Positions 2,323-37,197 of a DNA stretch of 64,000 bases are shown here, piece by piece. The position numbers and the translations under genes were made by a program. The notes below the pieces were generated by a model. That model did no database searches. It was given only the letters and a program-made list of their open reading frames with translations, and was not told the origin of the DNA. The DNA lies in the NCBI RefSeq assembly GCF_000204055.1, contig NW_006768777.1:1457877-1521876 (forward strand), written 5' to 3'. Each line of letters begins with the position of its first letter. Position 1 is the stretch's first letter. This DNA is from Melampsora larici-populina 98AG31. Taxonomy: Eukaryota > Basidiomycota > Pucciniomycetes > Pucciniales > Melampsoraceae.

Positions 2323-2615
2323 TACGGAATGCGAGAGGTGTCAAGGTGACAATGCAAAAATCAAAAAACGAAAATCACAATTCCCGGGTGCGAAATTCAA
2401 AAATCAAAGACAAAACTCGAGAAAATACTCAAATACAGGGATAAAACCCCTGTACTGGAGTAAAAGTCATGGCAGAAACCCCTTTCAGACCAGGTTACGG
2501 CCCAAATTTCAGTAGATTTACAACTTGAAACTCAACATTTGTCACCCCATTGTTGCATTGACACAAAAAGTACCAGGAAACCACAAAAGAGGACATCAAA
2601 ATTCAAAAATCAAAA
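2323..2615 (+). repeat. Left TIR of the giant element
   Basis: Reading inward it matches the reverse complement of about 36930-37197 with scattered mismatches and small gaps. Shared blocks include GTGACAATGC, AATTCCCGGGTGC and a long block reading CCCTGTACTGGAGTAAAAGT. It fades into an A-rich CAAAAATC repeat near 2600. Confidence 0.9.
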
Positions 2616-2865
2616 AATCAAAAAATCAAAAGTCGAAAATCAAAAAACAAATGTTGATAATCAAAAAACAACAATTAACAAACCATAAACAAAGACCCCA
2701 AAAATGAAAACTTCACATTAAATGATGAAAAGTGTACCTCTCTACCTCTCTACCTCTCAACCAATCACACAACCCACACACCATCACCGATCATCTTAGT
2801 CATTCCTCCAACTTTTGTCATAGTCTCCACCCATCCACTTGTTCAACCAAACCTACACTACACTG

Positions 2866-3330
2866 AACCTCTTTGATCGTCTCCACTCTTCTTCATCCTT
2901 ATTTGATCGTCTTCACTCTTCTTCACTCTTCTTCATCCTTATTTGACCATCTTGACTCTTCTTCATCCTTCTTTGATTGTCTTCAATCCTCTTTGATATT
3001 CTTGGATCGGCTTCACCCTTCTTCAATATTCTTGTATCGGCTTCATTGTTCCCTAGTATTCTTCAATTCTCTTCGATCGACTTCAATATTCTTCAATCTT
3101 CTTGAATCCTCTTCAATATTCTTCAATCTTCTTGAATCGGTTTAAATCTTCTTGAATCGGTTTCAATCTTCTTGAATCGGTTTCAATCTTCTTGAATCGG
3201 TTTCAATCTTCTTCAATCTTCTTCAATCTTCTTCGATTGACTTGAATCTTCTCCAATCAACTTCAATCTTCTTCGATCGACCTCAATCTTCTTCAATCAG
3301 CTTCAATCAGCTTCTTCTTCGACTTTGGTT
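2866..3330 (+). repeat. Left subterminal pyrimidine-rich repeat array
   Basis: This is a degenerate array of CTTCAATCTTCTTGAATCGG-like units on the plus strand. A purine-rich array of the mirrored kind lies at 36230-36750 next to the right TIR. The symmetry suggests subterminal binding sites for the mobility machinery, which is an inference. The array also lies just upstream of the alpha-kinase gene. Confidence 0.75.
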
Positions 3331-3357
3331 TCTCTTGGATACTCATATTTCACTATC

Positions 3358-5503
3358 ATGAACTGACCTACTTGTCCCTTATGTCAAAGTACTCTCCGTC
3401 AAGGCGAACACAAAATTTGTGGACCCTGCCTTGAAAACATCAATGCGGATCGAAACAAAAAGGTTCCTTCTCCCCCCCAGCAGGCACCCACCCAAGCTTC
3501 TCAACCCCGCCCTGCCAATCTCAAGGTCATCAATGCCAAAGCAGCTGTTGCAGCCCGTACCTCGACTTCCACTGGTACTCATGTCCACCAACTTCAAAGC
3601 GACAAGTCAAAGCGAGCTGCTGCCAAGAAACAAGCTAGCAGCAACCGCATGTTTAATGGTCACCCAGCAGCACCTAAACCTCCACCTTTCACTACTCACA
3701 CTGGCCGAGTATGCTCTGTAGGATGGATGGTGATATACAAGACCGGCTCTTTCGCTCATGGTCTACTTCGGGGAACTTTCACTGTGGATAGGTCATCGTT
3801 GACACTCTTGGACGACACTAAGGAAGGCATCTTCAACCTGTGGGACCACTCTGTTGACTCTCCTCTTTACCCTCAGGCACCCAAAGTTTACAACTCTGAG
3901 TATTTCAACCTGGCCAAAACCGGCCGTGGCCGGAAAGCACCTGTGGTCTTACACAACAATGAAGTTTTTGCCAGATATCTTGACGACACTAAAGGAGAAC
4001 CTAGCCTTGAGCTAATTTTTCTGGCTGACAAATATGTCAAAAATAATCCTTGGCTTCGACCTTCCACCAGTAAGCCGGTACAACCTCAACAACAAGCTAA
4101 AAGAAAGGCATCTCAACATTTGACTTATGAGGAGATGTTATTAGATGATGGAGATGAAGAAGCGAATTATGGTGATAGTGATCTGCCTTTGAGTGTTGAA
4201 ATATTCCAGCCAAGCAAGAAAGCCAGGTGTACACCTTCAACTTCAACAAAAGTCACCTCACCACGAGTCACTCGAAAGAAGGCTTCTAATTTTAAGACCA
4301 AGAATAGTACATACACACTCCCGCCACCCATCACCCCACAAAAATCTCCCCACCGTGCTCAGATTGATGTGGCTCCTGTAGCTATGACTCATGTGATACC
4401 ACCTCACCAGACAGGTAAGCTGACCGCTCTTGTTCACTACTCATTTTTGGTCTGGCTGACATTCCCTCCTTAGTACCGGCCTTTGATTTCAGAGAGGCTA
4501 TTGATATCTCCGTATTCGGACGAAAGCTTCCCATGGCTCGCCCTGTTCCACCTGCTGAGACTACAGACGGTTTCACCGTTGGGAAAAAATGCATTTTGAC
4601 AGGAAATGCAGAAGGTAAACCGGAATGGGTGGTAACACCGTATCATTTCAAAGTTGATGAAAGTGTGGTGATTGGAAAAGGTTCTTTCAGGACATGTTAC
4701 AATGCCTTTGGAAGAACACCTGGTGGAGAGGTCACTCCAATGGTTGCCAAGAAGCGGAGGGAGCTGCCTCCCAATATGACTCATCTGGCTGTCCATAAAG
4801 AATCCGGTGGAGTGTATGCTGCTGTTTCCATGGTGATTGAAAAGTTTAAGAAAGCCGCTTTGGGTCTGAATGAAATTCAACTTTTCCCTGCAACGGTTGA
4901 AGCTATCCAAAACATTTGTGTGAGTCAAATATATGGATCTCATTTTATTCAAGCTTTCTCGATAACATGTTTTTATTTTCCAGATGGTTCAAAACTTTCC
5001 GGTATATGCAGGAAGCAGTGCTACGACAGAATGTGCTTATTTCTTTGAAGAAGTACTTGATGTTACACAATACCGCAAGTATACCAGCAATCACAACTTT
5101 GAACTCCGGCCTTCAGACAGTCCTTTAGTCAATGAAGTAATGCAAGCTCTCAGTCATTGGTCTCATAAACACTATGACAGAAGAAGAATGGTTGCGGATC
5201 TTCAGGGGGTAGGTTTGGTATTGACAGACCCTTTGATTGTGGATACGAGCAAGTAAGTACTTTTGTGCTTGCATTCCAACATTTTGCCTGACGGTTTGTT
5301 TTGGCCCCAGTATGGCTTGGTGCGACGGAAATACTGGAAGGAAAGGCTTGGAGAACTTCTCTACCCAGCACGAATGCAATAAGATATGCAAGCACCTGGG
5401 GTTGCTACGGCCAAAGGTAGCACAATTAAGTCTACGGGAGGAGATGGAGCTGTTGTATGGAGGTAAGTCTGGGGAACAGACTCATATTCCAGCAAGAGAT
5501 TAG
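3358..5503 (+). pseudogene. Alpha-kinase domain protein, early in-frame stop
   Basis: Four exons: 3358-4414, 4474-4919, 4984-5252 and 5311-5503, giving 655 codons in a single frame. Introns use GTAAGC, GTGAGT and GTAAGT donors. The N-terminus has two CxxC pairs (CPLC, CGPC), perhaps a zinc ribbon, and the middle is low-complexity. The C-terminal half is an alpha-kinase (MHCK/eEF2K/TRPM7 type). It has a VAKK lysine likely to bind ATP, then SHWSH, DLQGVGLVLTDPLI, a D-G-N-T-G glycine/asparagine loop and the HECNKICKHLGL zinc-binding tail. Such enzymes phosphorylate Ser/Thr; the target is unknown. The third codon is TGA (3364-3366), so either this start is wrong or the copy is broken. The next in-frame ATG, at 3649, would lose the CxxC region. 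A later donor-like GTAAGT at 5462 could change the end. Confidence 0.85.
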
Positions 5504-5635
5504 CACAAGGCGGAAATCCAGGAGTAAATTCTTTCTTTTCAATCTGTATTCCAAAATTTGTCGCTCTTATAAAATTCAAAAAATTACAAAAACCCTTTGC
5601 TCACAAAATATCATCATAAAAAAAACATGTATATA

Positions 5636-7267
5636 TCACTTTAAATATCTAAGTGCTGACCCCTTTGTTTCTTTATAAAATTTTATCTTACTTTCAAGTT
5701 GCTCAACATTTGCCCTTTTGCGTTCCAGTTGCTTGTCATAGGTCTCTGCAATGCTAGTGTGCAACTTTTCCCAGCTCTCATCATCCAAGCCAACCCGCTT
5801 GGCCATAATTTCCTCCATTGCAGCCACCACTGTTGTACTGATCTGTGTACTGCAAGCATAAGCTAGTACATGGTCTACAGTCCCCTTGATCTTCTCAAAC
5901 GCTTTGATTGCCTTGTTTTTCTCCCTAGTCACAGCACCCTGCAAGTATGTAGTCTTCTTCTTTTCTTCCTTAGAAAAAAGGTGATGGTCCGTGTAGTGGG
6001 AAACATCTGTTGCCCATAGTAATTCTACCACATCAGCTGCATTGATGTCTATAATAAACTTGAATTTTCCAATCTCAATCACAAACTTGGCGCCTACATG
6101 TGGATGCTTCTTATTGATACGCTTTCCAGTTTCTTGTTCAAGGGCAAGTTCTTTCTTCCTTTCAGCCAACAGTTGCATTCTTCTTTCCGGACTTATGATT
6201 TCAGCTGCAACAGTTGAAATCAGAAAGCTGTGTTAAGGGATTTCAATGAAAAGAAAAAACTCAACAGGTATTGGCATCAATTAAGCAGAATAATCCAGAT
6301 GCAAAACCTGTTGCATCAAAGTCACAATGACTTCCATTGCGGAATCCACCTGTGGTCACTACCACATTTGATCCCACAAAATTCTTTTCCCCAAAAACTT
6401 GTGCATTGGGAGATTTTTCCCACTCTTTGCTTCCAGGAACTGGTGCTTTGGCTGCCCAAGACGGGGCATTTGTCTCCTCTGCAAGTTGCTTATTGGAATC
6501 ATAGACAAAGAGTGACAATGATGAAGTCATTTCAGCGTGAAAGTCTTCAACCCAAGGGAGTTTGTCTTGCCGGGCTTCTTCTTCATCTAGTTTGGCTGGA
6601 GTCTTGCTGGTAGCTGAGTTTTGTGAATAAGTTGCTGAAATCAAACAAGAAACCAAATAAAAATTTGAGAGGAAACACATTCCAGAAGCTGAAAAAACCA
6701 ACCAATAATTGTTCCTCTTTGGTACTTCCCAGCTCGCTTGGATGATCTGTGCCCAAATGCCTTCATAGTACCTTGCCGCTCCTCCTTTGGTAGCATCTTG
6801 ACTGCATGATTCTCCTTGATTACACCTCTGGCTTCTGAGTGTTGATGCATTATTTTGATAGCTCTTCTAAAATCTTTCCAATGTTGCACTTCCTTTGGAT
6901 CTTTGCTGGCTGGGTCCTGAAACAAACCACATTAGCAATGTGTAAAGAACAGAAGAACCCAGTGGAACTTTACCTCTTTGTTGAATCTAGCAACACATAT
7001 CAACTTATTACCTGCTAAGTTTACTAGTACAACAGTCCCAGAACTAACTACTCTCTCTTTACTCTCACCAAACTGAGGCACCCTGAAAACCATACAATCT
7101 TCTGGCAAGCCAAACCTTTCTTTGATCCCAGTCTTGATATTCTGATTTACAAATTCCCATCCCAGATCCCGTACCAGATCCCGTGTAGCATTGTGCTTTT
7201 GAGACCTCTTCTTTGTTTGATACTCTGCCCGCTTTTCTTTCTGGTGGTTGGATAGTGGTCTTTTCAT
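5636..7267 (-). CDS. Probable TET/JBP-like 2-oxoglutarate/Fe(II) dioxygenase
   Basis: Four exons on the minus strand: 7267-6974, 6916-6703, 6634-6266 and 6204-5636, giving 481 aa with no internal stop. The N-terminus is basic (MKRPLSNHQKEKR). The centre has a VTTGGFRNGSHCDFDATG stretch, where H-C-D matches the iron-binding HxD of the double-stranded beta-helix dioxygenases. About 95 residues later comes VVELLWATDVSHYTDHH, a candidate for the distal iron ligand. This pattern resembles the TET/JBP family, which oxidises methylated pyrimidines in DNA and is expanded and transposon-linked in basidiomycetes. The usual downstream arginine is not obvious, so activity is uncertain. It converges on the alpha-kinase gene. 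A GTAAGA near 5690 may be a further donor. Another DNA- or RNA-oxidising dioxygenase is possible. Confidence 0.55.
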
Positions 7268-8808: not shown

Positions 8809-10245
8809 CTATTCAGTGTCCATAGCTTCATCTTCTTCTCCGCATATTGCCAACTTAGCATGATTGACCTTGACAAGCTTGGTGTAAGCTTTTGGGAGAA
8901 AAGCACAAGACAATTGTGGCACTTGGACTGACCAGTAGTAACCAATATCATAAGCAATACATACAGCAAGTTGAATCTTGTCCACCCTAACATCACCAAA
9001 ATTATTACCATCTAATTCATTTGAACTTGAAGGCTGAGAAGAATTATTTATTTGAGTGCCAGCCTGAGCTGCTGAATATGCTTTCTTGAGAAGTCCCATA
9101 ATGTAATCATGAGTTCTACACCAAATTGCTTCCTTAATCTGTATGTTGTCCAACTTTTGAATTTCCTCTGCTGATTTGAGTAAACTCATTACATTTTTAA
9201 CTCCCAATATGTTATTGTCTTTTCTGATCATCATTAAACCCCTGACACCTCCAGTCAAGAACCCTGCCAGAGGTCCCCAGTAAAAGTCTACAGCCTTCAA
9301 TGCATCCATATTGTCTGGTAAATTTTTCCGTAATAAATCAAATTCCTGTTTCTTCTTAACCTTTGGTGTTTTAGCATATAAATCAAGCACTGCAATCCCC
9401 AAAATTAAATCATGTACATGAACGGCAAATTCGTTAAGATGTGCTAAGTTGGAAGCTTTGAACATTGCCGATTGAGAAACTGGACCTTGAGAAATTTGAG
9501 TGTTTGATTCATCAGTATCAGTAAGTAGGTCTAAGGTTCCAGTGGAACCAATTTTTGGCCTTGACGATAAGAGGTGTGAGACAAAGATGCAGCTATCTTC
9601 GTAAGGCGTTAAATCTTGATTCAATTGAAAGGTTGTGCGATAAAGGACTTTGTCTCCAGCTACTGCAATTGCATCATGAAATAACCGTGACACCTTGCAC
9701 TGTTTTTCAGATGAGGACCAAGTCATTGTCCTGATTGAACTCCAGGTAAAGTGTTGCCAGGATTTCAGGTCTGTAGGAAGATTGTTCTTATCCCCATACA
9801 TATCCTTTTCCGCAAATAGTGAAGGACTCCAGATATTTGAGCTGAAAAAGATTTCACCCTCCCTAGGTGAGAAAAAATCTAACCCTGTAATATGTAATAC
9901 TGGTAAGTATTGTGCATTTCAATCTATGGATAAATAGACAGCTGACCTTCCTCCTTAACCCGGACTAGCCATTGTTTCACTCTAAGAGAACTGTCAGAGA
10001 AGTAGGTACCAGCTGGTAATGTAAATGAAGGTTTTTCTAGAAGTGGAATGTGATTATTACGTAATTGAATAAGGCGAAATGCTGTATCTCTTCCTTTAGT
10101 GTAATCCTTGGAATTGCAGGGTTTTGCAGCAGTAGGGAAGTTTTTCTCGAATACTTCGTGGTGGCGTAGAATGAATGGACGTGATTCTAGAGCGGTTACG
10201 GGGTTTGGATGGTTGGATGATGGCTCTTACGCAGGGATAGTATTC
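8809..10245 (-). pseudogene. Unknown cargo gene, 3' part (split by the CACTA-like element)
   Basis: This holds the end of exon 3 (10245-9947), an intron, and exon 4 (9884-8809, ending EDEAMDTE). It joins the 5' part at 25312-27345. Counting one copy of the ACT duplication, the four exons sum to exactly 1,083 codons in one frame. An in-frame TAA lies a few codons past the insertion point (10213-10215). No family is recognised. Exon 4 looks globular, with a hydrophobic AVHVHDLILGIAVLDLYAKT helix and a later VAGFLTGG-like loop (actual residues LAGFLTGGVRGLMMIR). In the giant element it sits between the dioxygenase and SNF2 genes. Function unknown. Confidence 0.8.
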
Positions 10246-10248
10246 ACT
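10246..10248 (+). repeat. Target-site duplication ACT of the CACTA-like element
   Basis: ACT at 10246-10248 and again at 25312-25314 flank the element. Removing one copy with the element restores the host reading frame. Confidence 0.8.
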
Positions 10249-10735
10249 CACTGCCAACAATTTTGACTTGGATGATAAAATCCGAGGACTCCTCGGATTT
10301 CGTATCCGAGATATCTACCGACTTATATCAACCGAGACACCACCGATTTGATGCATCCAATCAAAATCTAACCAACTTAATCATCCGACCATTAACCGAG
10401 GCTATCCCAAGCCGATATATCCTCCGACTGAATCTAACCGACTATTCAGTGACCTAATACCGACACAATTGCCTCATCCGAATGAACCTCTCCGAGTCAT
10501 AAACTGACCAAGGATTTCAATTTCCAAGCTCTGGAGGTAAGGATATTTGATATTTAGTCGAATTCCCTAGTCATTACCTCGGAAGCAACAGTTCCAACTG
10601 ACTCAATGCCCTTTTTAACCGAGGTTTTATAGATCCAATGCGACCCAATCCATCTCTCCACTGACTCAACAAGACACCTCACCAAACCAGGATAATCTTG
10701 CTCTGAACCTATCATTCTCATTTTTCTAAAATTCA
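10249..10735 (+). repeat. Left extended TIR of the CACTA-like element
   Basis: It aligns with the reverse complement of about 24830-25311, estimated by eye at 75-80% identity. Both ends carry a short palindrome CCGAGGACTCCTCGG, then a shared stretch around AACCGAGGCTAT and AAGCCGATATAT. Confidence 0.85.
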
Positions 10736-11119
10736 TCGATATCTGTTACGACTCACAGCAAATTGAAGTAACCAAACCTCTCGATCAATTACCAAACTTC
10801 AATTACCAATCTTGCCGAGCTTTCATCAAACTACAAACAAATGAATTCAACACATACAACTCAATCTTATCTTTACCATTCATACCCTTTACCCTGCTCA
10901 AGATCATTAACCAATTGACCAAGAACACTTGAAACGGATAAGACTACCAATCTGAACAATATCATCAATGGCACTCATGCTGCTAAGTGAGGGTATTTGA
11001 CTGTTATCATAGAAACATCACCAAACACTTACCATGATCTTCTTACATCAACAGCTTCGAGAGCAGATTGCAAAACACCAAAACCGATTGCCAATATACA
11101 CGGCACTTTCACAAGTCAA

Positions 11120-11560
11120 CTCAATCAGATACAGCTCTTTTCAATCAATTGTGCCCTGCAATTAAGGTCAAAGAGATCAGCGCCAATCATGCTGAGATGA
11201 TTGGCAAGTTGGGAATCAATACCTCGAATACACCTGAAGAGCTAACTGAAGAAGAACACTCTAAGTTTGCTCGATCCTGAAAAAATCATTGGTGAGTCCT
11301 TTTAAGTCAAGCTTTAGATAGATCTGAGATTGACTATATTCATATCTTCATTTTTATCAGGCACTGTGTTGTTGATAACAATGATCGACTCTTGAGACAA
11401 ATCACAATAGGTAAGGCCCCGCACAGCAGGGTCGAGTGCTCAAGAAAGGCTATGACACTGCAGTAGTAAGCGAGTGTATGGCTGTACTTACCCTCAGCAA
11501 TGATCTCGCTGATATGTGCAAAAGGGTTCTGATTGGGAGTTTCTAATCTACGCGTACAAA
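11120..11560 (+). pseudogene. ADE3: Captured fragment of C1-tetrahydrofolate synthase
   Basis: A first exon-like piece (about 11128-11290) encodes DTALFNQLCP, then GKLGINTSNTPEELTEEEHSKFAR. A GTGAGT donor follows and a TATCAG acceptor at about 11361. The next piece encodes VVDNNDRLLRQITIGKAP and then, after disruption, SECMAVLTLSNDLADMCKRVLIGS. The segments appear in the order found in the formyltetrahydrofolate-synthetase part of trifunctional C1-THF synthases (cytosolic one-carbon metabolism). The fragment has frameshifts and stops, keeps intron signals and covers only a small part of the enzyme. It looks like a DNA-level capture inside the transposon. Symbol by family resemblance only. Confidence 0.7.
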
Positions 11561-11607
11561 AGGGAGTTGGGGTTATGGATATTGATATAGAGAAGAGGTA
11601 TCCTTTC

Positions 11608-11716
11608 ACTGCATCCGCCAGAGTCGTTCTCGACGTCAAGAACGTTGCCGACTACAAAGGTCCCCTTTGTAGTTTATGACCATCTTGACGTCGAGAACGG
11701 CTCTGGCGGATGCAGT
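11608..11716. repeat. Long hairpin inside the CACTA-like element
   Basis: Arms of about 33 bases (11608-11640 and 11683-11716) are almost perfect inverted copies containing TTCTCGACGTCAAG. A smaller palindrome ACTACAAAGG...CCTTTGTAGT lies in the loop. Confidence 0.85.
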
Positions 11717-13720
11717 GTTTGATACTTGCAGAATATAACATGGAAGAACATCAAAAATTAGTTAAATCATGTATATAACCTAGTAAACCCTGATCTTCAT
11801 CTTCATCCCCAATACTTGATAATCTTGAAGGAAAAAAATCACAAAAAGGAAGAAGAATTAGGGAGAAGAAAAGGTGATGGAGAATCATCTGTTGGACAAA
11901 AATGTGCTAACATTGAAAAGCTTTGGATGTGTATTTGGGTTGGAATTAGATCATCTCTTGGACAGGAATCATTCTTAAACAAGTTTTATATTGTGGATTT
12001 TGTACCAATTTTTTGGTTTTTATTCTTGAAGATATTTATGTATACTTAAGCATTTTATATATTGTCATTTCTTTCCTAAATTATAAAGGTCATCATTGTT
12101 TTCCCTTGGATTCTGATATTCAAAAGAATTTTTGACAAAATGAAATGAACATCTTATCATCAATTGAGATTTCTATTGTAAATATGCCACATAAAAAGAA
12201 TCTCACAGGAGTTCTCTTTCTCTTTTGTAGAATTTGATCTGACTGACTTTTGTTGAAAACTGTAAATCTTGAAAAATGGCACCAAAGTTTTGATGGATTG
12301 TATGAAGGTTATTTTACTTTGAGTTTGTTTAATGGTAAAGATAATGATGGCTGACTCACAATACACACATATACCTCATTTATAGTTCAATTTCACGTGA
12401 ATTTTTGTACATCAACTTTCCCTTGTCTCTTGAAAATATTGAGACAAGTAAGTCAGAGATCTCTTCAATATCATCCCTCAAGACATTAATCATTTGAATT
12501 ACACCTATCATAATTCTTATTCTTTTGACTTGGAAGCTTTTGAATCAAAACCTCATTGTTTTGAATTGAATACTTGGTATCAAGCTTGAAGTACTCCTAT
12601 TGATCAAATGAACTGATTTGATTTTTTTAGGGTGATCACTAAATGTGTTTGTGAGACTAGTAGCCACTTCCAGCATTAAAGAGGTTCCCAGATGGGAATA
12701 TGGGTCCTAGTGATCAGATTCCCATTCTGCTACTGTTACACAGTTCCATGAATATTGCCTGAGTAGCCATTGTGATATATGTAGTCAATATTTTGAAATG
12801 TGTGTCTCAATCTGAACAAAGTTACAGCATGTATTACACATGATTTTCTTATCTAGATGAGCAGATAACTGAGCGGAATTACACCTATCATAATTCTTAT
12901 TCTTTTGACTTGGAAGCTTTTGAATCAAAACCTCATTGTTTTGAATTGAATACTTGGTATCAAGCTTGAAGTACTCCTATTGATCAAATGAACTGATTTG
13001 ATTTTTTTAGGGTGATCACTAAATGTGTTTGTGAGACTAGTAGCTACTAGTAGCCCAACATTGAGCTAAATCTTTTTTCCCCATTTTGGTAAACAACCTT
13101 CACTGCATTGAGTTATAACAAGTTGTTCAGGAGCATGACCAAAAGCTCTCCTAAGTCCAAAGATGATTACTAAATATGAAGCAGGAATGAAAAGTCTTGG
13201 AATGAGACACTTAATTTGACTGTTTGATGATTGAGGATGAGTATGACAAGTAGTTGATAGAGAATAAAAACCATGAAAAATTGCTTTTAAAGTAACTTGA
13301 TTATGATCAATATCAATGGATTGAATGGTTTATAAGCAAATCTGGTGAACTTCTGCCTTATCCCGTATAAACAATCAAAAATTGGAACTCAATATGGTGT
13401 CAATGGAAACAAATATGAGGGAGACAAAGGTAAAATGGGATGAATCAAGTTCTTTGTACTTGATTTACACATCAATGATGACTTACAAACTTGAATAAAT
13501 CATAGATTGATTTTATCAAATGGCAAACACACAGTTAAACTGTTTAGCAATTGTATAAATGTGACCTTTGACAAGTTTAGTGAGTGTCTTCACATAAGGA
13601 AGTTTTGATATATATACCAACATGGAGAGAAACTTTCTCACTGTGATGCAAAAGTTGCATATGTAACTTCATGCAACTTTTGTCACCAAAGGGGGTGATA
13701 CATACAACATATACAATTAC
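11717..13720. other. Non-coding part of the CACTA-like element, with a 169-bp duplication
   Basis: No convincing gene is seen. A 169-bp segment at 12496-12664 recurs, apparently identical, at 12876-13044. The 211 bases between the copies include the sequence around 12700-12870. Short ORFs here have no recognisable content. Confidence 0.6.
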
Positions 13721-15493
13721 GGTACTCAAAGCAACTATTTCTATGTATGTAGTTGCTGTATATAGTTTGTTTTTGGCAAGGAAAATACTTTCAAAAGTAC
13801 ATTTTTGTTTTTACCTGTCAAAAAAAAGGATACAGCAAATATACACGTGTACATATATAGCTTTGAGTACCATAAATACATACAATACATACAATACATA
13901 CACAATGTATACAATGTATACCATGTATATAATGCATTCAATACATAAAATACATACAATACATACAATACATACAATACATACAATACATACAATACAT
14001 ACAATACATACAATAAATGCAATATATGCAATATGTTCAATACATACAATAAATGCAATACAATAAGAGTGCTAAAATTGAGATTTTTGGATACTTTTGT
14101 CATAAAGCACCTCACTGGATTCTGTAAAATTCACTGTCAAATTTATGAGATCCAGAAAATGCTTTTGAGACTACCAATTCCTATAGCTGTAGCTTAAGCT
14201 ATAGGTTCTTCAAATAATCACAAACATGTAAAAATCTGTTACTTGACTCATTTGATCTTTTATGAATTAGGCACACTTTTTACAGCTCAAAAAACTATAA
14301 AGTTTACCTGATCCACAAGTGTGAAACTCAAAAGTGTTGAAGCTGACCCCTCTTACTACATCCAATATATCCAATATACCCAATACACACAATACGTACA
14401 GTACATAAAATACATATAATATATACAATATATACAAATTAGTGAGGTGCTATATATTGCATATATTGTATATATTGTATATATTGTATATATTGTATAT
14501 ATTGTATATATTGTATATAATGTATAGATTGTATATATTGTATATTGTATGTATTGTATACGTTGTATATGTTGTATATACATATTATATATGGTGTATA
14601 CACTGTATAATACTGTATATATGGGATATTGTATTTATTAAGGGTACTCAAAGTAAGTATGTACGTGTACGTACTTGTTGCTATATACTTTTTTTGGTGG
14701 GGAAGACAAGGCCAAAAGTATATTTTTTTCTTTGTCCCCGCCAAAAAAAGTATGTAGCAAAAAGTATGTAGTGCTACATACTTTACTTTGAGTACCCTTA
14801 TTGTATATATTTTATATATTGTATATATTGTATGTTGTATATATATTTGAGGTACTGAAAGCTGTGTATACTTTGTTGTACATAGTTTTTTTCTGCCTGC
14901 ACAACTATACACAACCAGGAAATCTATGTTTCTGGCTTAGAAGCAACACTGCCACAATTACTTTACCAGTATCGGTATGGTAGTGGTATTGTAATGTCAA
15001 TATCAGTATTGCAGCAACAATACGTTACTGCCCAATCCTCCTGGCAGTATCTTGTACATATAGTGTTACTTTACTGAGTATTGTATTGCCCCCAAGTATG
15101 ATACCGGAATGGGCCCAGGGAAGTATCAAGTTCACAATCTCTATTGTTTTTGTGTCCGGGAGTGCAATACTATGATACAGTATCAGTATCTGATTGTTAT
15201 TGTGACAAGATACAGTACTAGGTAATGGGCGGCAAGTATTGCCATTGCAATACTTTACTGAGTATCATATTGTGGGTAAAACTATGTCAATGAGGCTCAG
15301 ATTCTCTAGTATTGTATGCCCGTTACTTTACTAAGTATTGTCAATAAGAGACCAGTATCATATTTGTGGCAGCATTGTTAGAAGTACATATTGTTGAGCT
15401 TCAAACAAAAGACATACTTTTTCTGGGTCATGTCTAGCTGCAAAAAAAAAAAAAAAAACTATACACAGGAAAGTATACACAGCTTTGAGTACC
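13721..15493. repeat. Three palindromic MITE-like copies among TA-rich microsatellites
   Basis: Copies at 13721-13871, about 14639-14800 and about 14849-15493 each start GGTACTCAAAG (third copy GGTACTGAAAG) and end CTTTGAGTACC. Their interiors resemble each other (TATACTTTTTTTGG-like). The third carries about 0.5 kb of extra AGTATTG-rich sequence. Between them are TACAATACA and TATATTGTA microsatellites. The long ORFs across these tracts are repeat artefacts. Confidence 0.7.
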
Positions 15494-23090: not shown

Positions 23091-23094
23091 GTAG

Positions 23095-27345: not shown

Positions 27346-27904
27346 TGTTCAAAACTAATCTTTGAAAGGTTTTTGATTTGATGAAGACCCGTATATAAAA
27401 AGTTATGAAAGAGTTACTAATTTGACCCTGAAATTAATCAATAATTTAAAATTATATTTCAATCTGATCAAATTCTACTACTTCAATCGCTGATGTTTCA
27501 ATAAGATCACTATTTTGAGAGTATTTCAATGATTTGAATTTCAGATTGACAAGATTTGATTGTTGAGATATATATATAAAATGATATCAATGTATAATTG
27601 ATTGATTTAATGATTGAATTAAATTATTAGGATGTAAATCGATTCAAATCTTGATATTTGATTATATTTGATATTGGATGGAGTAGTTGAGAAAAGGTTG
27701 TGAATGTAATGATATTAACTAGACTGTTTCAATATTCCAGAATGAATTTCATTTCAGCTTATGTGAGCTCATTGTGATTGATATGGATATTTAAAGGCTT
27801 ACCAGTTTTCAAAGAGGTTGTGGTTTTGGATTGGTGTTGAAGTTTGTGTTGAAGTTGTGAAAAAGTGGGAGTTGAGTTGGAAAAGTTGGTTGAGGAGAAG
27901 GGAA
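27346..27904. other. AT-rich intergenic region upstream of the unknown gene
   Basis: No ORF or repeat of note. It presumably holds the promoter of the minus-strand gene that starts at 27345. Confidence 0.4.
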
Positions 27905-28101: not shown

Positions 28102-30128
28102 AGGACCCTGGAAAGCCCCTATATACCCGCCTAATTGGGTATGTAGGAATTGGCCTTTTTGGGTAAAAATGGTCCTTATGTTCTGTGTAGGAATTCTAAA
28201 AATTTGAAAAAAAAAGTCACACAGGAGCCTTATTTTGTATGTAGGAATATGTCAAAAAGTGTGGAAAAAAAAATTAGGTTTCTTACACATTAGGTAGGAA
28301 AGAGGGTTCTCAGGGCCACCAGGCTACCCACTTCAATACATAAGGTGAGTAGCAATGATCATCGAGTCACAATGAAACCCGATGTTATTGTGTATAGATA
28401 CCAATCATGATAGTATTGAGTTTGAAGCTCAGGTAAGACAATTTTTTGCACATTTTTATGTAAAAGGGTGTGGAAAAATGTCATATTATGACAGTTGATG
28501 GTCATTGAAATCGAGATGTCTGACAGTCTGGCATGGGTCAGCAAGAAGGTTGTTTCAACCAGTTTCAACCGAGTCCAAACATTTGAAATGGCCTGAAAGT
28601 TGCTGAAACAGCTTGATTCTGCTCGATCACAACATTTTTTTTGTTTGATCTTGATAGTTTTCGTTGATATTAGACACAATTACTATATCTCGCGTAGCAA
28701 AAGAAAAAAAACAACCACCAGGATCCTGTGGCTTCTGATCACGCCAATGCAAATGGAGCCACCAAATTGGACCCTCGGACATGTAGTAAATTGGTAGCCA
28801 TCATGCTGAAAAACTCTGAGCAGATGGACAAGGCTCTGGATCGCTTACATCGATGGAACATTCATGTAAAGCTTGACCTCAATTGGATTGCAAAAAATAC
28901 ATCAACAACTCTCGACATCGCAACACAAACACTTTATACAAGTGGCAATGTATCAGAAGACAATCCACTTGAAGTAAACAAGTTTGTTGTGGTTATAAAA
29001 AACAATGTATGTCATCCCCTGTTTCAAATATGAAGCTGCCGACTCTGATCATTTAATGTACTCTTGATTCGTTTTAGATGCTTTTTTTGGGTAAGATCTG
29101 TGCTCTCTACATTTACCAGAATGGTAAGCACGAGTGGATCACCAAATCGTCCACTCGATCTAAGCTCTCATATGCATCTACCCAGCTTTACATGTATAAA
29201 GGGAATCCTGGAGCGTGTAGTTTTGAAGAAAACTTTCCAAATCGCCTCATATTCTCGCATCTTGATATAGCAGATATTCACTATGTGTTTCCCCCCACCT
29301 CATCAATGAATATTACTGAACCCAAGGCTAACACCATATGGATTCCTCAAGCTTATCGTGCTATGTTAAAGGCTATGAGCCAGAAACAGTACATCAAGGC
29401 AATTCTCGAACAACTTGCTGTTGAACACGCTAAAGCTAGAAAAAAATAAGCTATACTTGAATTGTAATATCTAACTTGGTTTTTATTTCTCTCCACCTTA
29501 TCTAGAGATTTGATTTTGTGTTATTTCTTCAAGTTGTTTCGCTTCATCTCTCCCAAATTCAAAAAAATACCAGTCTCTTTAGTCCCTTTTCTGAAACGTT
29601 TGACTGCTCTTTTTCTACTTCTTGATATTGAATTCTCAGACCCTGATCTCCCTCATGTGTAGAGATTCACTTTGATGTTTTTACCTGTTACAGCAGTGGA
29701 CCGACTGCAGTGGCTGGCCAGGAACTGGAAACACAGTCCCTCCAGTGGCTGGCCAGGAATTGAATTACTCGTTTTTTTTAAAACTCAACTACATAACACT
29801 ACATAGCTATACTACTCACTAGTCTATTTCTCTCTCAACAACTTCAACTCTTGTGATTCTTCTACCAAATTCCCAAAAAAATATACAAGTTTTTCCGGAA
29901 AAAAAATCAAGATGTCTAATTGCTCTGAAACGCCCAAAAACACAGATTTTGAGGGTCCTTATGCAGATGGAAGGAATATTGGGACCTTTCTCCAAAAAAA
30001 AAAATGGTCCTTTGTCAACAGGTAGGAATCCGAGTTTTTTTTGTGAAAACCGGCGAAATTTGTGTAGGTAGGAGGGGAAAATTTCGGGATTTCCATTAGG
30101 AGGGTATATCGGGGCTTTCCAGGGTCCT
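28102..30128. mobile_element. 2-kb hAT-like element with one gene
   Basis: The TIRs of about 33 bp begin AGGACCCTGGAAAGCCCC and are imperfect inverse copies. The 8-bp duplication is typical of hAT elements. There is no room for a full hAT transposase, so the element is non-autonomous. It contains one spliced gene (28728-29449) of unknown type. The TIR-proximal sequence on both sides has TGTAGGAA-like words and poly-A runs. Confidence 0.8.
28728..29449 (+). CDS. Unknown protein in the 2-kb hAT-like element
   Basis: Two exons, 28728-29006 and 29078-29449, joined by a GTATGT...TTTTAG intron. They give 217 codons in one frame, the last codon being the stop. The first visible codon is GTG and an in-frame TAG lies about 33 bases upstream, so the true 5' exon is either missing or joined through an acceptor near 28727. 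Exon 2 begins FLGKICALYIYQNGKHEWI and ends with a helical KKxx-like, lysine-rich tail (AKARKK). No known domain is recognised. It may be cargo or an accessory mobility gene. Confidence 0.5.
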
Positions 30129-30535: not shown

Positions 30536-31610
30536 ACAGAGGTACCAGATCTTACCACCGGTGGATCTTACAAATCCGGGTCATTATGTGTGTAGTAAAA
30601 ATCATCATCAGAAACTCTGAAAGAATTTCATATTTTCTTTGATTATTTTCGACACATGATGAATACCTATTTTAATATATGATTTCAATTAATAAGCTTA
30701 TAAAAGGGAAAAATCTTTAAAATGATGGGTTCATTACTCTTTCTTAAAACAAAAAGAAACCATCATTTTAAAGAATCTTTCAATTTTAAACTAGATTCAA
30801 TCTTAGCACTTTTCCTTTCCCGCACTTGAATACAATTCACCTAAGCAGGCCATCTGTCTATTGATTTCTTCTACTTTTGAATCTTGAATTTGAAATCATT
30901 TCTCTTAATTTGGTTTTGATGAATTTTACTTTAATTCCTCTTCTTGTTTCTCCTTCACACTTCTAGTATTAACTTGTACTTTCCCTTGTGAATGTTCTTT
31001 ATCTGTTCTGGCTTACAATGAAGATTAGGTACCTCCTAATGTACAACTGATTTTCTGGAACTTTGTTTTTCAGAATTGTAACATTGAAAAGAATATTTTG
31101 TAATTGGTTTTTTCTTCTTTTAATTTTTCTTACATCGGGTAATAACTTTGCAAATGTTTGTCAAGGTTTTGGATACCTTTTTTTTGAGCTGATTGTATCT
31201 GGTGTCTTTGCTCTTGATTATTTCATTCTTTTTACTTTTTATTCATTTCTGAAAAGATAGTTTTATGTGTTCATGACTTGAAAATACATCATGTTAGGCA
31301 AACAAGTTTATGATCAGACCCTGTACATCTGGGATGTTCCAGTCTTATCTCCTATGTGCATGTGCATGGATCTTCATATGCACGCATGGATCTGCAAGTG
31401 GCAGCAGGTATGTGAAAGTATGCACATGAATATGCGGGAAACCACAAGAACACTGCAGATTCACGCAATATGGGGATCCATACTCAAAAGCATGCAAATC
31501 TGGAGTCTAGGGTGATGCACAATGTGTGATATAAAGACTGCCTCTCTGAGGAAGTCCTTTCCCCTCCAAAGATCAAATTATTTCATCCTGTTTTCTTCAC
31601 ATTTATAGAT
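30536..31610. other. AT-rich region before the SNF2 gene
   Basis: It contains a hairpin (ATGATGG...CCATCAT, about 30721-30772) and T-rich tracts. A short open frame from 31291 to 31515 could be a 5' exon of the SNF2 gene, but no splice pair was confirmed. Confidence 0.4.
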
Positions 31611-31626
31611 CTACAACTCAACCCAC

Positions 31627-34279
31627 ATGTTACCCACACATCACATTAAAGAACCAGTATGTGCTGGGGGTATCAACTTCAAAGTAGCTTCAATAACTTC
31701 ATCTGCTATTGAAATCACTCATCCATTCCATTCACCTTTGCACATGATTGCAAAGGTTTCTGATGAACCTGATGTCAGTCACGAGATTCAACTTTATCTC
31801 CCAAATGGCAACTCTGTAGGCTATGTTCCCAGAGGTGTAGACCACTGTATTTTAGATCTCATCCACTATAAAGCAGGAAAGCATTACTCACTCCCAGCTG
31901 GTGGATGGACACCAAAGAAGGATATCCAACACTTACACACACCACTTATCAGTTGTTACCTCAACACATCAGACAAGGGTAATGGAACAACACAATTCTT
32001 AGTTACTGCATTAGTCTTTATCAAGTATTCTGATCAATCACAAGTCATCAAGACAATGTGTGAACATGAAATTTCACTGGATCAACCTCCAAGCTACAAT
32101 CCTAGCTTTCATCATCATGTAGATCTTATCAACATTACAGGACTGACCACCCCTGACTGGAAATCTGCATTCCCGGAAACTCACCTTCTTTCGGCTACGC
32201 AGGCTGCCCAACTTGCATCAATCCAGTGTGGAGAAGATCTTCAGCCATCAGAACCATCAGATATCATTAAATCTCAGCTGAAACCTCATCAGAAACAGGG
32301 CCTGGCATTTTTATTAGATAGAGAAAACCCATTATCCACCAGCTATAGATCACTGTGGCAATGTGTTAACAAAGGCTCCTTTAACAAGTGGACACACCGT
32401 TTGTGTGGCGAGGAATTCATTTCAACAGCAGATAACCCGGCCCCAATTAGTCCACGGGCATCTATACTGGCTGATGACATGGGACTTGGGAAAACTTTAC
32501 AAACAATCACTTTAATTGCTACCACCTTATCAGCTGCAATACAATTTGAGATTGATAATCCAGAATCAGATCTCATCACCAATCTCCGCTCTTCACACAC
32601 CACTCTACTGATATGTCCTACAGGGCTTATGGACACCTGGCAACAGGAGATTATAAAACACACAAAAAGAGGTGGTTTGAAATTTATGCGCTGGCATGGT
32701 GCAAGTAGGATGAAAGTTGACTTGAAGGAATGGAAATCTGCTGATATCATATTCACCACCCCAATGACACTTGTGTTTGATGTACGGCACTCGGGAAAAC
32801 CCCGGCTCCCTTTTACAACAAGGTGGTATAGGGTGGTATTTGATGAGGCTCAGTAAGTCTCATCCTTTTCTGAATCCTTGTTAGTCCCATGAATTGGGAC
32901 CCAGGCTAATTAATGACTTTAACCAGTGTTATTCAAAATGAAACTTGTACACAATCCATTGCGACATCTTTGAGCTCAGTCAACAGGCTCTGTCTCACTG
33001 GTACTCCGCTCCACAACAGAATTTGTGACCTTCACATGCTGCTCAAATTCTTACACATCAAGCCTTTTCAGCAAGATTCAGTATGGTACCATCAAATTGT
33101 ACGACCAGTTCATAATGGTGACCTCCGGAAACTTTTACAACTATTGAGATATTTCATGCTCAGACGGACCAAAGCAAGCCATCTACCAGATTTACCTCCA
33201 ATCCACCATCAGACCATATTGTTAGGTTTGCATCCACAAGTGAAGATTATACATCAGCAGCATTATCACAAATTTCTAACCCAATATGGTGTTGCTCGTC
33301 AAGGGACATTCAAACCAGGGGAGTACTTTAAACAATTGAGCAATCTCAGAATGACATGTGATCACCCACTTTTGTTTAAACTGGAAAACAAGTCAGAGGA
33401 AAGGAGAATCACTGAGATGGAGGAGGAACTCGGAATAATGGTACCTGATGAGAGGAAGCTTGAGGGGAATGCAAGGCCAGCTTATACACAGGACTGGTTA
33501 CTCAGCACTAAACTAAATTACTTGGTCAGCAAGCTTATTGAAAAGAAAAATCTTAGACTTAGAAATTCAAACAAAGACATCAAGAAGACTGTGATCTACA
33601 CCCAGTGGAGGTGCTTCATTGACTGGTAAGTATAGTCCCAGTCTTCTTCATTGAGACAGTTCTGGCCTATTTAATCTTACTCAACTTTACTACAGGATAA
33701 TGGTGGCTCTGGATAATAATCACATTCAAACCTGCTCCTTACACGGTGGAATGACCAATACTCAGAGAACATTCCAACTCAAAAAATTCAATCAGGACCC
33801 AGAAGTTGATGCTTTTGTGGTCTCTATAGAGGCTGGAGGGGTTGGTTTAGATATGACTTGTGCAGACGAGGTCTACATAATGGTATGATATAATCCACAA
33901 ACCTCGATTTCTCTGATGCATACACTAATTGCCAGTGCCCTTGCTTTAGGATGCCCATTGGAACCCCCAAATAGTACAGCAAGCAGTTGACCGGGTTCAA
34001 CGAATGGGTCAGACTCATCCAGTCAATGTTTTTCATGTAGTTGTTCAGGATTCTGTTGAACAGCACCTCTTCAATGTGAGTTTCCTCTCAAGTGTGAAAA
34101 ATTTGTGATGTCTGACAAACCCCATCATACTTCAGGTTCAGAAGAAAAAGGCTTCTTTAGCAAGTAAAGTAATTACTTTATCGGTTCCCAAGGATCAACT
34201 AGAACAATGTGTCAGGGCTGGTGATACTATGGGTGATGAAGTTGAAGATTTTGATGTCAATATGTGCTATAAGATGTAG
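31627..34279 (+). CDS. SNF2-family ATPase (Rad5/Rad16/HLTF-like)
   Basis: Five exons: 31627-32852, 32927-33625, 33696-33882, 33950-34075 and 34136-34279, giving 793 aa with no internal stop. The N-terminal 200 residues are unassigned. The helicase core begins at LKPHQKQGLAFLLDRENP (Q-region). It continues with DDMGLGKT (Walker A), LLICPTGLMDTW, DEAH formed across the first intron, and RLCLTGTP (motif III). The second lobe has SLHGGMTNTQRT, SIEAGGVGLDMTCAD (motif V) and VDRVQRMGQTHPV (motif VI, Gln for the usual Arg). Such proteins translocate on DNA and remodel chromatin or repair intermediates in the nucleus. No RING finger is seen between the lobes. An ATG-less extension back to 31612 follows a TATAG acceptor, so an upstream exon is possible. 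It is the best-preserved gene of the giant element and lies 372 bp from the convergent integrase gene. Confidence 0.93.
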
Positions 34280-34651
34280 AAGGTATAGACAGATTTGAAT
34301 CCATCAAAATGTTGCTCATTGTTGTGATCTTATATCTTTTCCCTCTGTACATGTGAAGGGACACCAAATCAAAGCCCTCTTCTGTCATACAAATATACAT
34401 GTGTATTGACTTTGACACAAGTCTTTCAATTTTCTCTTTCCCCACATGTGCATAGATGAAGCCACCTGGATACCATGTGGGAACAATCCTGCAGCCGTAA
34501 TTACTTGACAGGAACTGGAGATCACAATATTCCAAGTCACAAGTAACAAAGATCAATACAAGATTTTTTAAAATGATTTGATGGTAAATGGAACAAAGAC
34601 TTGTTTGAAATGACAATCATGTTTCAATGCAACAGTTTTAAAAATCCACCA

Positions 34652-36217
34652 TCAAACAAATACCATAGAGTCATCACCTTCAACACGGGCAAAGGGAGTG
34701 TTACTCCAAGACAAATCTTTCAATCTTGCTAATACAACATCAAAAGAACCCCAAAAATTTCCAATGTCCAAATCCCTGCTCACAATTCCAACTTCTTCCA
34801 TGACTCGTTCAACAACCGGGGAAAACCACTCAGGGGTTGTGCTCCACAAGTTTTCTTGCTCCGGGTATTCATCAGAAATGATAGCATCCACCGCTTCACC
34901 TGGGACTGGTATGAGGTAATCAATCCCACCAAATTCTTCCACGGGGTTTTTGTAGCAGTAGTCTGCAGAACACCCTGTAGGTAATTTAGACCGCTTGTCG
35001 TATCGTCTGCAGAAACCATTGTAAAACTTGACCCATTTGTCCAGAGCTCGTTGAAAGACGGGAATAAACAGGTGGAGAAACAAGGCCCTGAAAAGCAATA
35101 ATCAAGATTTCAGCATGGAATCACCAAAGAAAATGAAAAGCAGCTTCACCTAGCCATTGGATCATATTGATCATATAAATCTTGATCAATGCGCTCTTGA
35201 ATTTTAGCTTTGATATTTCCAGTCAGTCCACAAGTCATTTTGTCCCAGAAGCACTCAATCTTTTGGTTACGAGGGGATGGAACATATTGATGATACGGCC
35301 AGTTTGGAGCTCTGGAACTGTAAGTTTCTCCGAAATAAAGTTGATGTCCCGCAAGAGGAACAGTCTCAGTTCCTCGATCTGTGGTGAGCTTTTTGGGAAT
35401 GCCACCTTGCTTTTTTACAAGCCCCAGATACCACAAGTCAACATGGCGGGGGTCGCTGTTGGTGACATGAGCATGAAGTCCCAAGATCTTTCGAGACCAG
35501 CAATCAATGAAACCATATATACCAATTCCAAAGTTCATCAACTTGTCGTGTCCATCGGAAGCCCAAACCTCATTGGGACCGCCCGCATAGTATTCCCGTT
35601 GCTTGAGTTTATGAGCAGCTCGCATTCTGACAGCATCTGGGTCCATTGCCTTCATCATAGCCGCAATAACATCACTATATAAAAGAGGATTTGGAATGTA
35701 ATTAGCATCAGAGCAAAATGAATCAAGAAGGGCCAAACACTTGCCGGTGGATGTGAAGCTCGTGTTCCTGAGCTAGCATCTTCTTGATACTCTTGATTCC
35801 AAGTACATTTCCATATTCAATCTGAAGTTCTTCAATCTTGTTACATACGGTGGCATATGTTACTACACCCATGTCAAGATCATCCTTTTGGCGGTGAAGA
35901 TTGAGTTGCTTCTCAACTTGAGCTAAAGTTGACCGGCTGATGATGATGTTATGTTCGTTTTTGAGGGCAATGAGAGCTCGCTTTTGGTTCAGAGATTGTT
36001 TGTAATTATCTAATACTGCATCCTTTACAACCTCCACATCATAATTTCCTTGTTGTTTCAAGTCCCATTCTTTGATCCGTCTTCTAACAGTTCTTACACA
36101 TACTCGGATGTTGTGCCGTTGCCAAACAGTGTTGCATACTGTTTGTGCTGGCTAGTTGTTAGCCACAGCTTCTTCCACAAGCGGTCGCAAGATTTCATCA
36201 GATATTTTTGCTGGCAT
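34652..36217 (-). pseudogene. DDE integrase (rve fold), probable transposase of the giant element; early stop
   Basis: Three exons: 36217-35745, 35674-35150 and 35087-34652, giving 478 codons in frame. Intron 1 uses a GC donor (GCAAGT). The catalytic core has Asp in VWASDGHDK, GIYGFIDCWSRKILGLHAH, the second Asp in KLTTDRGTET, and Glu in NQKIECFWDK, which is a complete D-D-E set. The N-terminal half is helical with helix-turn-helix-like segments (RTVRRRIKEW; IIISRSTLAQVEKQL). Codon 22 is TAG (36152-36154), with the open frame continuing after it, so a CAG-to-TAG change is likely. It is the only DNA-joining enzyme found inside the TIRs, and the 6-bp duplication suits it. Similar 'integrase core domain' proteins occur in basidiomycetes; their exact family name is not assigned here. 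Confidence 0.88.
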
Positions 36218-36229
36218 GTTGGTGTGTAG

Positions 36230-36750
36230 TTGGTGATGGAGACTGAAGGTGTTTGGATGAGGATTGCAGAAGATTGAGGACAGTCGAAGAATATTCAGGA
36301 TAATCAAAGAAGATCGAGGATGGTCTAAGAAGATTGAGGACGGTTGACGAAGATTGAGGAAGATCAAGGACAGTCGACGAAGAAAGAAGAAGGTTGAGGA
36401 CGGTCGACAAAGATTGAAGAAGATTGAGGAAGATCGAGGACGGTTGACGAAGAAAGAAGAAGATTGAGGACAGTCGACAAAGATTGAAGAAGATTGAGGA
36501 CGGTTGTTGAAGATTGAGGAAGATCGAGGACGGTTGACGAAGAAAGAAGAAGATCAAGGACGGTTGACAAAGATCAAGGAAGATCAAGGACGGTCGACGA
36601 AGAAAGAAGAAGATATGAGACGGTTGACAAAGAAAGAAGAAGATCGAGGACGGTTGACAAAGATTGAGGAAGATCAAGGACGGTCGACGAAGAAAGAAGA
36701 AGATCAAGGACGGTTGACAAAGATTGATGATGATGAAAGAGGTTTTGGAG
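36230..36750 (-). repeat. Right subterminal repeat array
   Basis: Repeats of GAAGATCGAGGACGGTTGAC and GAAGAAAGAAGAAGAT units, purine-rich on plus. Mirror of the array at 2866-3330. The open frames through it are repeat artefacts. Confidence 0.85.
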
Positions 36751-36929
36751 GAGAGCGAGACAGGAAGCAGGTACTTTGAAGCTCTTGAGACAGATGGTAG
36801 AATGTCTCCGGTCGGAGGTGTTGAGACCTGTGAGACCGAGCTTGTAGCTAGTTGGCCAACATGTGGTTTTTGGCTGCAGTAGAATCTAACATTGGTGTTT
36901 GAATTGTACAGTTTGAGAAATGTATTTTT

Positions 36930-37197
36930 TGGTTTTTGGTTTTTTGATTTTTTGATTTTTGGTGTTGCTGGTACTTTTTGTCGAAAGGTGACAATGCAAT
37001 GAAAACGGTGTCGACCACTGGAAATTTGGGCAAAAAGGGGTTGCTGCCATGACTTTTACTCCAGTACAGGGGTTTTATCCCTGTATTTGAGTATTTTCTG
37101 GAGTTTTGTCTTTGATTTTTGAATTTTGCACCCGGGAATTGTGATTTTTGATTTTTGAAATTTCGCATTGTCACTTTGGAACGTCTCGCATTCCGTA
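36930..37197 (-). repeat. Right TIR of the giant element
   Basis: Inverted counterpart of 2323-2615, ending TCTCGCATTCCGTA, followed by the AATAAC duplication at 37198-37203. Confidence 0.9.

What the first reader, a model, noticed from the sequence alone, without database searches (positions are those of the whole stretch)
2323..37197. A 34.9-kb giant transposon carrying integrase, SNF2 ATPase, TET/JBP-like dioxygenase and alpha-kinase
Seen: long TIRs, 6-bp AATAAC duplication, exact restoration of the Gag frame on removal, and a DDE integrase inside. Known: Mavericks have integrase, TIRs and 6-bp duplications but also a protein-primed polymerase and capsid genes, which are absent here. TET/JBP genes in basidiomycetes have been linked to KDZ transposons, but no KDZ transposase is seen. 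Inferred: a distinct class of cargo-carrying rust transposon that may modify chromatin or DNA methylation around itself.
Basis: partly seen in the sequence, partly recalled or inferred. Interest (0 to 1): 0.92.

Follow-up and report, generated by a model that had tools for sequence, protein, structure and literature searches.

The report
Rust transposon with TET and SNF2
A jumping gene of a poplar rust fungus carries genes for a DNA-demethylation-type enzyme, a chromatin-remodelling motor and a kinase; it belongs to an already named transposon family and owes much of its length to a second jumping gene lodged inside it.

Summary
In detail: 2323-37197 has ~300-bp inverted repeats, an AATAAC duplication, a Gag frame that reads on when the flanks are joined, and kinase, TET/JBP-type, SNF2 and DDE-integrase exons. 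The interpretation needs two corrections. (1) Not a new class: 6-bp duplications, TAYGG..CCRTA ends and TET/JBP between transposase and oppositely oriented alpha-kinase are the published marks of TET+ IS3EU transposons of rusts, Melampsora larici-populina included (Kojima 2025, PMC12730594); contig lengths place the window in that species. (2) Not one 34.9-kb unit: a 15,063-bp CACTG..CAGTG element with a 3-bp duplication sits inside and splits an unknown gene (X) of a ~19.8-kb IS3EU. New as far as my searches reach: SNF2 lies within 25 kb of 19 of 24 related integrase hits but 1 of 66 distant ones, and kinase-TET-X-SNF2-transposase are collinear in four other copies. The central TET-X-SNF2 block is far diverged from those copies (dS 0.8-2.0) while the flanking kinase and transposase are not (0.035-0.10), so cassettes appear to have been exchanged. 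Likely role: escape from methylation and chromatin silencing (inferred, not shown). New variant of a known kind.

The parts
1..355 (+). 3' part of the 5' LTR of the host Gypsy-type retrotransposon (the LTR begins 1,391 bases before the window; partner LTR 50705-52470)
   Evidence: 98.1% over 1,766 columns, TG..CA ends, ACGT on both sides; RT, RNase H and integrase zinc-binding domains in ORFs 45432-49559
2317..2322 (.). left copy of the 6-bp target site duplication AATAAC
2323..2626 (+). left TIR of the IS3EU element
   Evidence: own-genome search scored 40 of 142 candidates, all 40 (this one included) at >=95% identity
3367..5500 (+). alpha-kinase gene (exon ORFs 3367-4470, 4419-5045, 4966-5253, 5237-5500; splice sites not determined)
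   Evidence: PF02816 1.1e-19 for 4966-5253; 94-97% aa identity of ORFs 3367-4470 and 4966-5253 in the long copies
5600..5650 (.). left boundary of the diverged central cassette (identity to five other copies falls from 96-100% before 5500 to 76-78% at 5650)
   Evidence: the stretch 5234-6275 across it is 99% identical in an independent copy on C18
5639..7267 (-). TET/JBP-type 2OG-Fe(II) dioxygenase gene (exon ORFs 5639-6232, 6264-6866, 6644-6931, 6935-7267; splice sites not determined)
   Evidence: PF20515 5.9e-12 for 6264-6866; dN/dS 0.15-0.18 against 5 copies
8812..10226 (-). C-terminal part of gene X (no Pfam family), cut off by the nested element
   Evidence: 47-59% aa identity to 5 other copies
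10246..10248 (.). left ACT duplication of the nested element
10249..25311 (.). nested 15,063-bp CACTA/EnSpm-type element, CACTG..CAGTG termini, ~450-bp TIRs 78% identical; no recognisable transposase; rich in tandem repeats
   Evidence: TIR relatives elsewhere in the genome; in the 12 other IS3EU copies only short matches around 18.2-18.5 kb in one
25312..25314 (.). right ACT duplication of the nested element
25315..27348 (-). N-terminal part of gene X (acidic, repeat-bearing; ORF pieces 26962-27348, 26577-26942, 26157-26573, 25284-26105)
   Evidence: 26577-27348: 40-56% aa identity to 5 other copies, where it lies 0.9-1.0 kb from the C-terminal part; the two other pieces had no match there
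28698..29446 (+). two ORFs of unknown nature, not found in the other fetched copies
31609..34276 (+). SNF2-family ATPase gene (exon ORFs 31609-32853, 32910-33626, 33655-33885, 33950-34105, 34109-34276)
   Evidence: PF00176 1.2e-21 and 2.2e-22, PF00271 2.6e-9; first two exons matched in 5 other copies, later ones in 4
34650..34700 (.). right boundary of the diverged cassette (identity to four other copies rises from 42-45% to 84% and then 100%)
34655..36151 (-). DDE transposase/integrase (exon ORFs 35726-36151 HTH-like, 35149-35772 catalytic core, 34655-35101)
   Evidence: PF24764 6.9e-10 against rve 6.6e-4; D73, D132 and E173 of the core ORF nearly invariant in 15 sequences
36924..37197 (-). 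right TIR
   Evidence: own-genome search scored 40 of 156 candidates, all 40 (this one included) at >=95%
37198..37203 (.). right copy of AATAAC

Best explanation
A TET+ IS3EU DNA transposon of Melampsora larici-populina (~19.8 kb), inserted in the Gag gene of a Gypsy-type element and itself hosting a nested 15.1-kb CACTA-type element. SHOWN by sequence: a DDE integrase-type gene inside TIRs with 6-bp duplications, many related copies, and kinase, TET/JBP, X and SNF2 genes that stay collinear and mostly open over large divergence. INFERRED: the transposase binds the TIRs and moves the element by cut-and-paste; the TET enzyme oxidises 5-methylcytosine and the SNF2 motor opens nucleosomes on the element, together lifting silencing so that the transposase can be expressed; the kinase and X are accessory. 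Recombination between resident copies that share nearly identical ends swaps the central TET-X-SNF2 block as a cassette.
For: Exact 6-bp duplications in 10 of 12 other two-ended copies plus this one (the one of C10 is TTTTTT and so weak). Ends, gene order and orientation as in Kojima 2025. All five genes in 4 of 12 other copies (C12, with part of the first SNF2 exon missing, C86, C75, C28), four plus a transposase fragment in C43. SNF2 within 25 kb of 19 of 24 integrase hits at >=61% identity versus 1 of 66 at <=54% (copies of one family are not independent, and the cases C86:48986 and C75:360202 are owed to a neighbouring element). dN/dS 0.15-0.18 for TET (5 copies), 0.17-0.20 for SNF2 (5 copies, dS near saturation), 0.20-0.56 for the kinase (6 copies), 0.23-0.32 for the transposase in the 5 copies with over 400 codons (C43 with 35 and C105 with 43 codons left aside, the latter 0.81). 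Of the 14 longest other SNF2 exon hits 9 have no stop, of the 11 longest other X hits 9. Mosaic: kinase dS 0.035-0.052, transposase 0.046-0.103, TET 0.80-0.88, SNF2 1.5-2.0, X saturated; sharp boundaries; left junction repeated at 99% in a copy on another contig.
Against: No activity of any of the five proteins has been tested. The copies C18:1317015 and C49 have unmatched flanks. Gene X is broken here, so this copy may not work if X is needed. The right cassette junction was seen in this copy only. Five of 14 other SNF2 hits, and the aligned TET pieces of all 5 copies (2 each) and transposase pieces of 5 copies (1-4 each), hold stops; those of TET and transposase may lie in introns read through, which was not settled. 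The AlphaFold models of the integrase core and of X were too poor to use (mean pLDDT 47.8 and 31.8). Cytosine methylation of this element is unknown.
Confidence: 0.8

Rival explanations
1. A distinct new class of giant (34.9-kb) transposon.
For: Length between matching TIRs is 34,875 bp; SNF2 and gene X are not in the published IS3EU description as far as I could read it.
Against: The tested IS3EU features are met; 15,063 bp are a separate nested element with its own TIRs and 3-bp duplication; the five gene-rich relatives fetched are 16.7-19.9 kb.
Confidence: 0.05
2. A Maverick/Polinton relative that has lost its polymerase and capsid genes.
For: 6-bp duplications, long TIRs and an integrase are shared with Polintons (for the 6 bp).
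Against: Of 117 ORFs >=70 aa inside the element none matched a DNA polymerase, capsid, packaging ATPase or protease family at E<=0.01 (exons under 70 aa not scanned); the integrase core fits rva_4 far better than rve; termini and gene order are those of IS3EU.
Confidence: 0.04
3. SNF2 and X are passive passengers with no role in the element's life; only transposase and TET matter.
For: They go with only one clade of this genome's IS3EU integrases; 31 of the 66 distant integrase hits have a TET or kinase hit within 12 kb, none of those in that list depending on SNF2.
Against: dN well below dS over dS of 1.5-2 in five copies, collinearity in the long copies, and a well-supported SNF2 clade whose named members are all rust proteins (it also holds unnamed ones).
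Confidence: 0.25
4. The mosaic pattern is gene conversion homogenising the ends of two old subfamilies, not cassette exchange.
For: Only the terminal parts with TIR, kinase and transposase are near-identical; conversion would do the same.
Against: Boundaries fall at gene ends, the left junction is shared by two copies, and C28 versus C75 changes identity between X and SNF2; but conversion and exchange are hard to tell apart.
Confidence: 0.4

Closest known systems
TET+ IS3EU DNA transposons of Pucciniales (Kojima 2025, PMC12730594; seen: abstract, part 1 of 2 of the Discussion, figure legends, find-passages; supplements not readable here)
   Same: 6-bp duplication, TAYGG..CCRTA termini, TIR >30 bp, TET/JBP between transposase and alpha-kinase, kinase opposite to transposase, TET in transposase orientation (as in IS3EU-7_PSt, IS3EU-3_PCor, IS3EU-6_PSt), M. 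larici-populina among the hosts
   Different: adds an SNF2 ATPase and gene X between TET and transposase (SNF2 has 0 occurrences in that main text); nested CACTA-type element; mosaic cassette
IS3EU/GingerRoot superfamily (Kojima 2023, PMC10045372; passages only)
   Same: TA..TA termini, usually 6-bp duplications, DDE core without HHCC motif
   Different: phylogenetic placement not tested here
Polinton/Maverick
   Same: integrase, TIRs, 6-bp duplications
   Different: no polymerase, capsid, ATPase or protease found; different integrase family and termini
KDZ (Kyakuja-Dileera-Zisupton) TET+ transposons
   Same: carry fungal TET/JBP genes
   Different: 8-bp duplications in Zisupton-1_PGr and another transposase; none found here
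CACTA/EnSpm (for the nested element; hallmarks recalled)
   Same: CACTR-type termini, 3-bp duplication, long TIRs
   Different: no recognisable transposase, so the name rests on ends and duplication alone

Membership tests
IS3EU (TET+ subgroup) | 6-bp TSD | tested here: met
   AATAAC here; exact in 10 of 12 other copies
IS3EU (TET+ subgroup) | termini TAYGG..CCRTA, TIR >30 bp | tested here: met
   TACGG..CCGTA in this copy and in 12 of 12 others, which were chosen by TIR matches; ~300-bp TIR
IS3EU (TET+ subgroup) | TET/JBP gene between transposase and oppositely oriented alpha-kinase | tested here: met
   kinase +, TET -, transposase -; rule
IS3EU (TET+ subgroup) | DDE core without upstream HHCC zinc motif | tested here: met
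   D73/D132/E173; no HHCC seen by eye in ORF 35726-36151, where Pfam gave only weak hits, HTH-like ones best; absence of HHCC in IS3EU
IS3EU (TET+ subgroup) | transposase groups with Repbase IS3EU in a tree | not tested
   no Repbase IS3EU sequences on hand; only rva_4 versus rve scores
Polinton/Maverick | protein-primed DNA polymerase B, capsid, ATPase, protease | tested here: not met
   none among 117 ORFs >=70 aa at E<=0.01
KDZ | KDZ transposase, 8-bp TSD | tested here: not met
   6-bp duplication; no such family among the 15 Pfam families matched
CACTA/EnSpm (nested element) | CACTR termini and 3-bp TSD | tested here: met
   CACTG..CAGTG, ACT; other copies' duplications could not be fetched
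CACTA/EnSpm (nested element) | EnSpm-type transposase | tested here: not met
   none among its ORFs >=70 aa; it could be non-autonomous

The most novel reading that the evidence does not exclude
One clade of rust IS3EU transposons has assembled a two-enzyme anti-silencing module - a TET/JBP dioxygenase plus an SNF2 remodeller, with a co-inherited protein X - which is exchanged as a cassette between elements that keep the same ends, kinase and transposase, much as phages swap modules.
Probability: 0.35. Interest if true: 0.75.

Novelty: new variant of a known kind. Interest (0 to 1): 0.5.

Why it matters
If true, DNA demethylation and nucleosome remodelling are joined in one mobile element, a directly testable case of a transposon that carries its own kit against host silencing. 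It may also contribute to the SNF2 (2.56) and alpha-kinase (2.34) entries in a domain-enrichment table of a wheat-rust genome comparison (PMC5295586, passages only; the link to transposons is my inference). Cassette exchange between elements would be an unusual mode of evolution for a eukaryotic DNA transposon.

Tried and rejected
Maverick/Polinton and KDZ readings were tested and dropped. Structure prediction of gene X (2 rows) and of the integrase core (15 rows) gave unusable models, so no fold search was made. PDB sequence search: the integrase core gave 12 hits, oxalate decarboxylase-type at E 0.22-0.29, taken as chance; the TET exon none at E<=1; the second SNF2 exon matched SNF2-family remodellers generally. 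Gene X had one unnamed relative (41%) and no Pfam family. Some Pfam hits (MYG1_exonuc 2.1e-7, RHS_repeat, MNHE, TPR_DOP1_M, CRT10) were not located in the ORFs rescanned singly and are unexplained; low-complexity noise is my guess.

Limits of the counts. Own-genome DNA searches score only the best 40 candidates, so copy numbers are lower bounds. From those two lists I paired ends by hand into 23 two-ended copies and fetched 12 of the 23, the longer ones preferred. In one search codons with stops were left out, two TET ORFs overlap in different frames (6264-6866 and 6644-6931), and the copies are not independent of each other. The tree is rooted at the midpoint only, with several weak forks. 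A Repbase-based integrase tree was not possible.

Papers. IS3EU with SNF2: 0 papers. A wider search (DNA transposon, SNF2, passenger gene, fungi, alpha-kinase) found 38, 20 listed, none with a title on this; rust-fungi searches listed 20 of 39 and 20 of 59. PMC12210899 (passages) has no 'IS3EU' and no 'TET'.
Full report
WHERE IT LIES. The window is G000:C13:1457877-1521876 of a 98.3-Mb, 243-contig assembly. Two Melampsora larici-populina 98AG31 proteins found by homology sit on contigs of 1,894,030 and 153,096 bases, exactly the lengths of G000 contigs C10 and C105, so the fungus is taken to be the poplar rust M. larici-populina (inference). The element lies in the Gag-like gene of a Gypsy-type retrotransposon whose LTRs (window -1391..355 and 50705..52470) are 98.1% identical, with ACGT on both sides. 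It is therefore younger than that insertion.

THE OBSERVATION. Ends, AATAAC duplication and TIRs are as reported, and the joined flanks give 790 open codons. The kinase, TET-like dioxygenase, SNF2 (both lobes) and integrase-core domains are significant in Pfam.

NOT ONE UNIT. An inverted repeat of about 450 bp near 10249-10699 and 24870-25311 (77.7%) has CACTG..CAGTG termini and is flanked by ACT on both sides. Its 15,063 bp are missing from the 12 other copies fetched, except for short matches around 18.2-18.5 kb in one. Its TIR has relatives elsewhere in the genome, one at 97%. On either side of it lie parts of one minus-strand gene, X; in five other copies the same two parts are only 0.9-1.0 kb apart. 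Without the insert the element is about 19.8 kb, in line with the 16.7-19.9 kb of the five gene-rich relatives.

WHAT IT IS. Kojima (2025) describes TET+ IS3EU transposons in seven rust species including M. larici-populina: 6-bp duplications, ends TAYGG..CCRTA, TIR over 30 bp, TET between transposase and alpha-kinase, kinase and transposase in opposite orientation, TET in three families oriented like the transposase. All of this holds here. Of 12 other copies, chosen by TIR matches, 12 share the TACGG..CCGTA ends and 10 have exact 6-bp duplications. The integrase core carries D73, D132 and E173 as nearly invariant residues among 15 sequences, fits rva_4 rather than rve, and is one of 74 rva_4 hits in this genome, 72 over the cut-off. 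No Polinton gene family was matched by 117 ORFs of 70 aa or more.

WHAT IS NEW. SNF2 is not in the published main text and no held paper has both IS3EU and SNF2; the supplements could not be read. Here SNF2 goes with one transposase clade: 19 of 24 integrase hits at 61% identity or more have SNF2 within 25 kb, against 1 of 66 at 54% or less; copies are not independent, and one case on each side (C86:48986, C75:360202) is owed to a neighbouring element. In four other copies the order kinase-TET-X-SNF2-transposase is complete, in a fifth the transposase is a fragment. SNF2 exons of the window and four copies fall in a clade with Melampsora, Puccinia graminis, Austropuccinia and unnamed proteins, apart from HLTF, RIS1 and TTF2 rows (midpoint root, some forks weak). 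dN/dS is 0.15-0.18 for TET and 0.17-0.20 for SNF2 (NG86, dS near saturation for SNF2, stops left out). Of the 14 longest other SNF2 hits 5 hold stops, so many copies are decayed.

MOSAIC. Against other copies, synonymous divergence is 0.035-0.052 in the kinase and 0.046-0.103 in the transposase, but 0.80-0.88 in TET, 1.5-2.0 in SNF2 and saturated in X. Identity drops at about 5.6 kb and recovers at about 34.66 kb. The left junction is present at 99% in an independent copy on C18, whose TET and kinase exons are 98-99% identical, so it is not a local assembly error; the right junction was seen here only. C28 and C75 show a milder change of the same kind: 500-base blocks over TET and X are mostly 91-99% identical (one at 78%), over SNF2 80-90%. 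Exchange of cassettes, or strong gene conversion of the ends, explains this.

MECHANISM. Most likely cut-and-paste transposition by the DDE enzyme. Relief of silencing by TET-mediated oxidation of 5-methylcytosine is Kojima's proposal for such genes, not experimentally validated; a remodelling ATPase would be a natural partner, which is my inference. The kinase and X are unassigned.

VERDICT. A real member of a known transposon superfamily, inserted after its host retrotransposon, with an SNF2-bearing gene set and cassette mosaicism that I found undescribed in the texts searched; nearly half of the 34.9-kb length is a nested element.

Noticed in passing
own genome C27:925195-1027889, C86:87056-132450, C59:120638-151658: TIRs like those of the nested element lie in opposite orientation 102.7, 45.4 and 31.0 kb apart; they may mark very large CACTA-type elements or unrelated insertions. 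The ends could not be fetched.
   Followed up: partly
window 38130-45234: Within the host retrotransposon a 308-bp direct repeat (99.4%) brackets opposite-strand RT, RNase H and integrase-type ORFs, next to a 0.76-kb self-inverted stretch; probably another nested retrotransposon.
   Followed up: partly
window 13871-21287: The nested element is rich in tandem repeats: 9-bp units such as TTGTATGTA, GTACTATA-type arrays and 18.6 perfect copies of GTATT.
   Followed up: no
own genome C10:793428-808398: A short-type IS3EU copy is lengthened by about 6.6 kb between two stretches that are close together in the C49 copy.
   Followed up: no
window 2323-37197: One ORF of 70 aa or more matches MYG1_exonuc at 2.1e-7; it was not located among the ORFs rescanned singly.
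   Followed up: partly
own genome C7:304613-309606, C3:3212946-3217686, C32:390848-395665: Compact sets of kinase, TET-like and integrase hits (integrase 44% identical to this one) within about 5 kb and without SNF2 look like ordinary TET+ IS3EU families.
   Followed up: no
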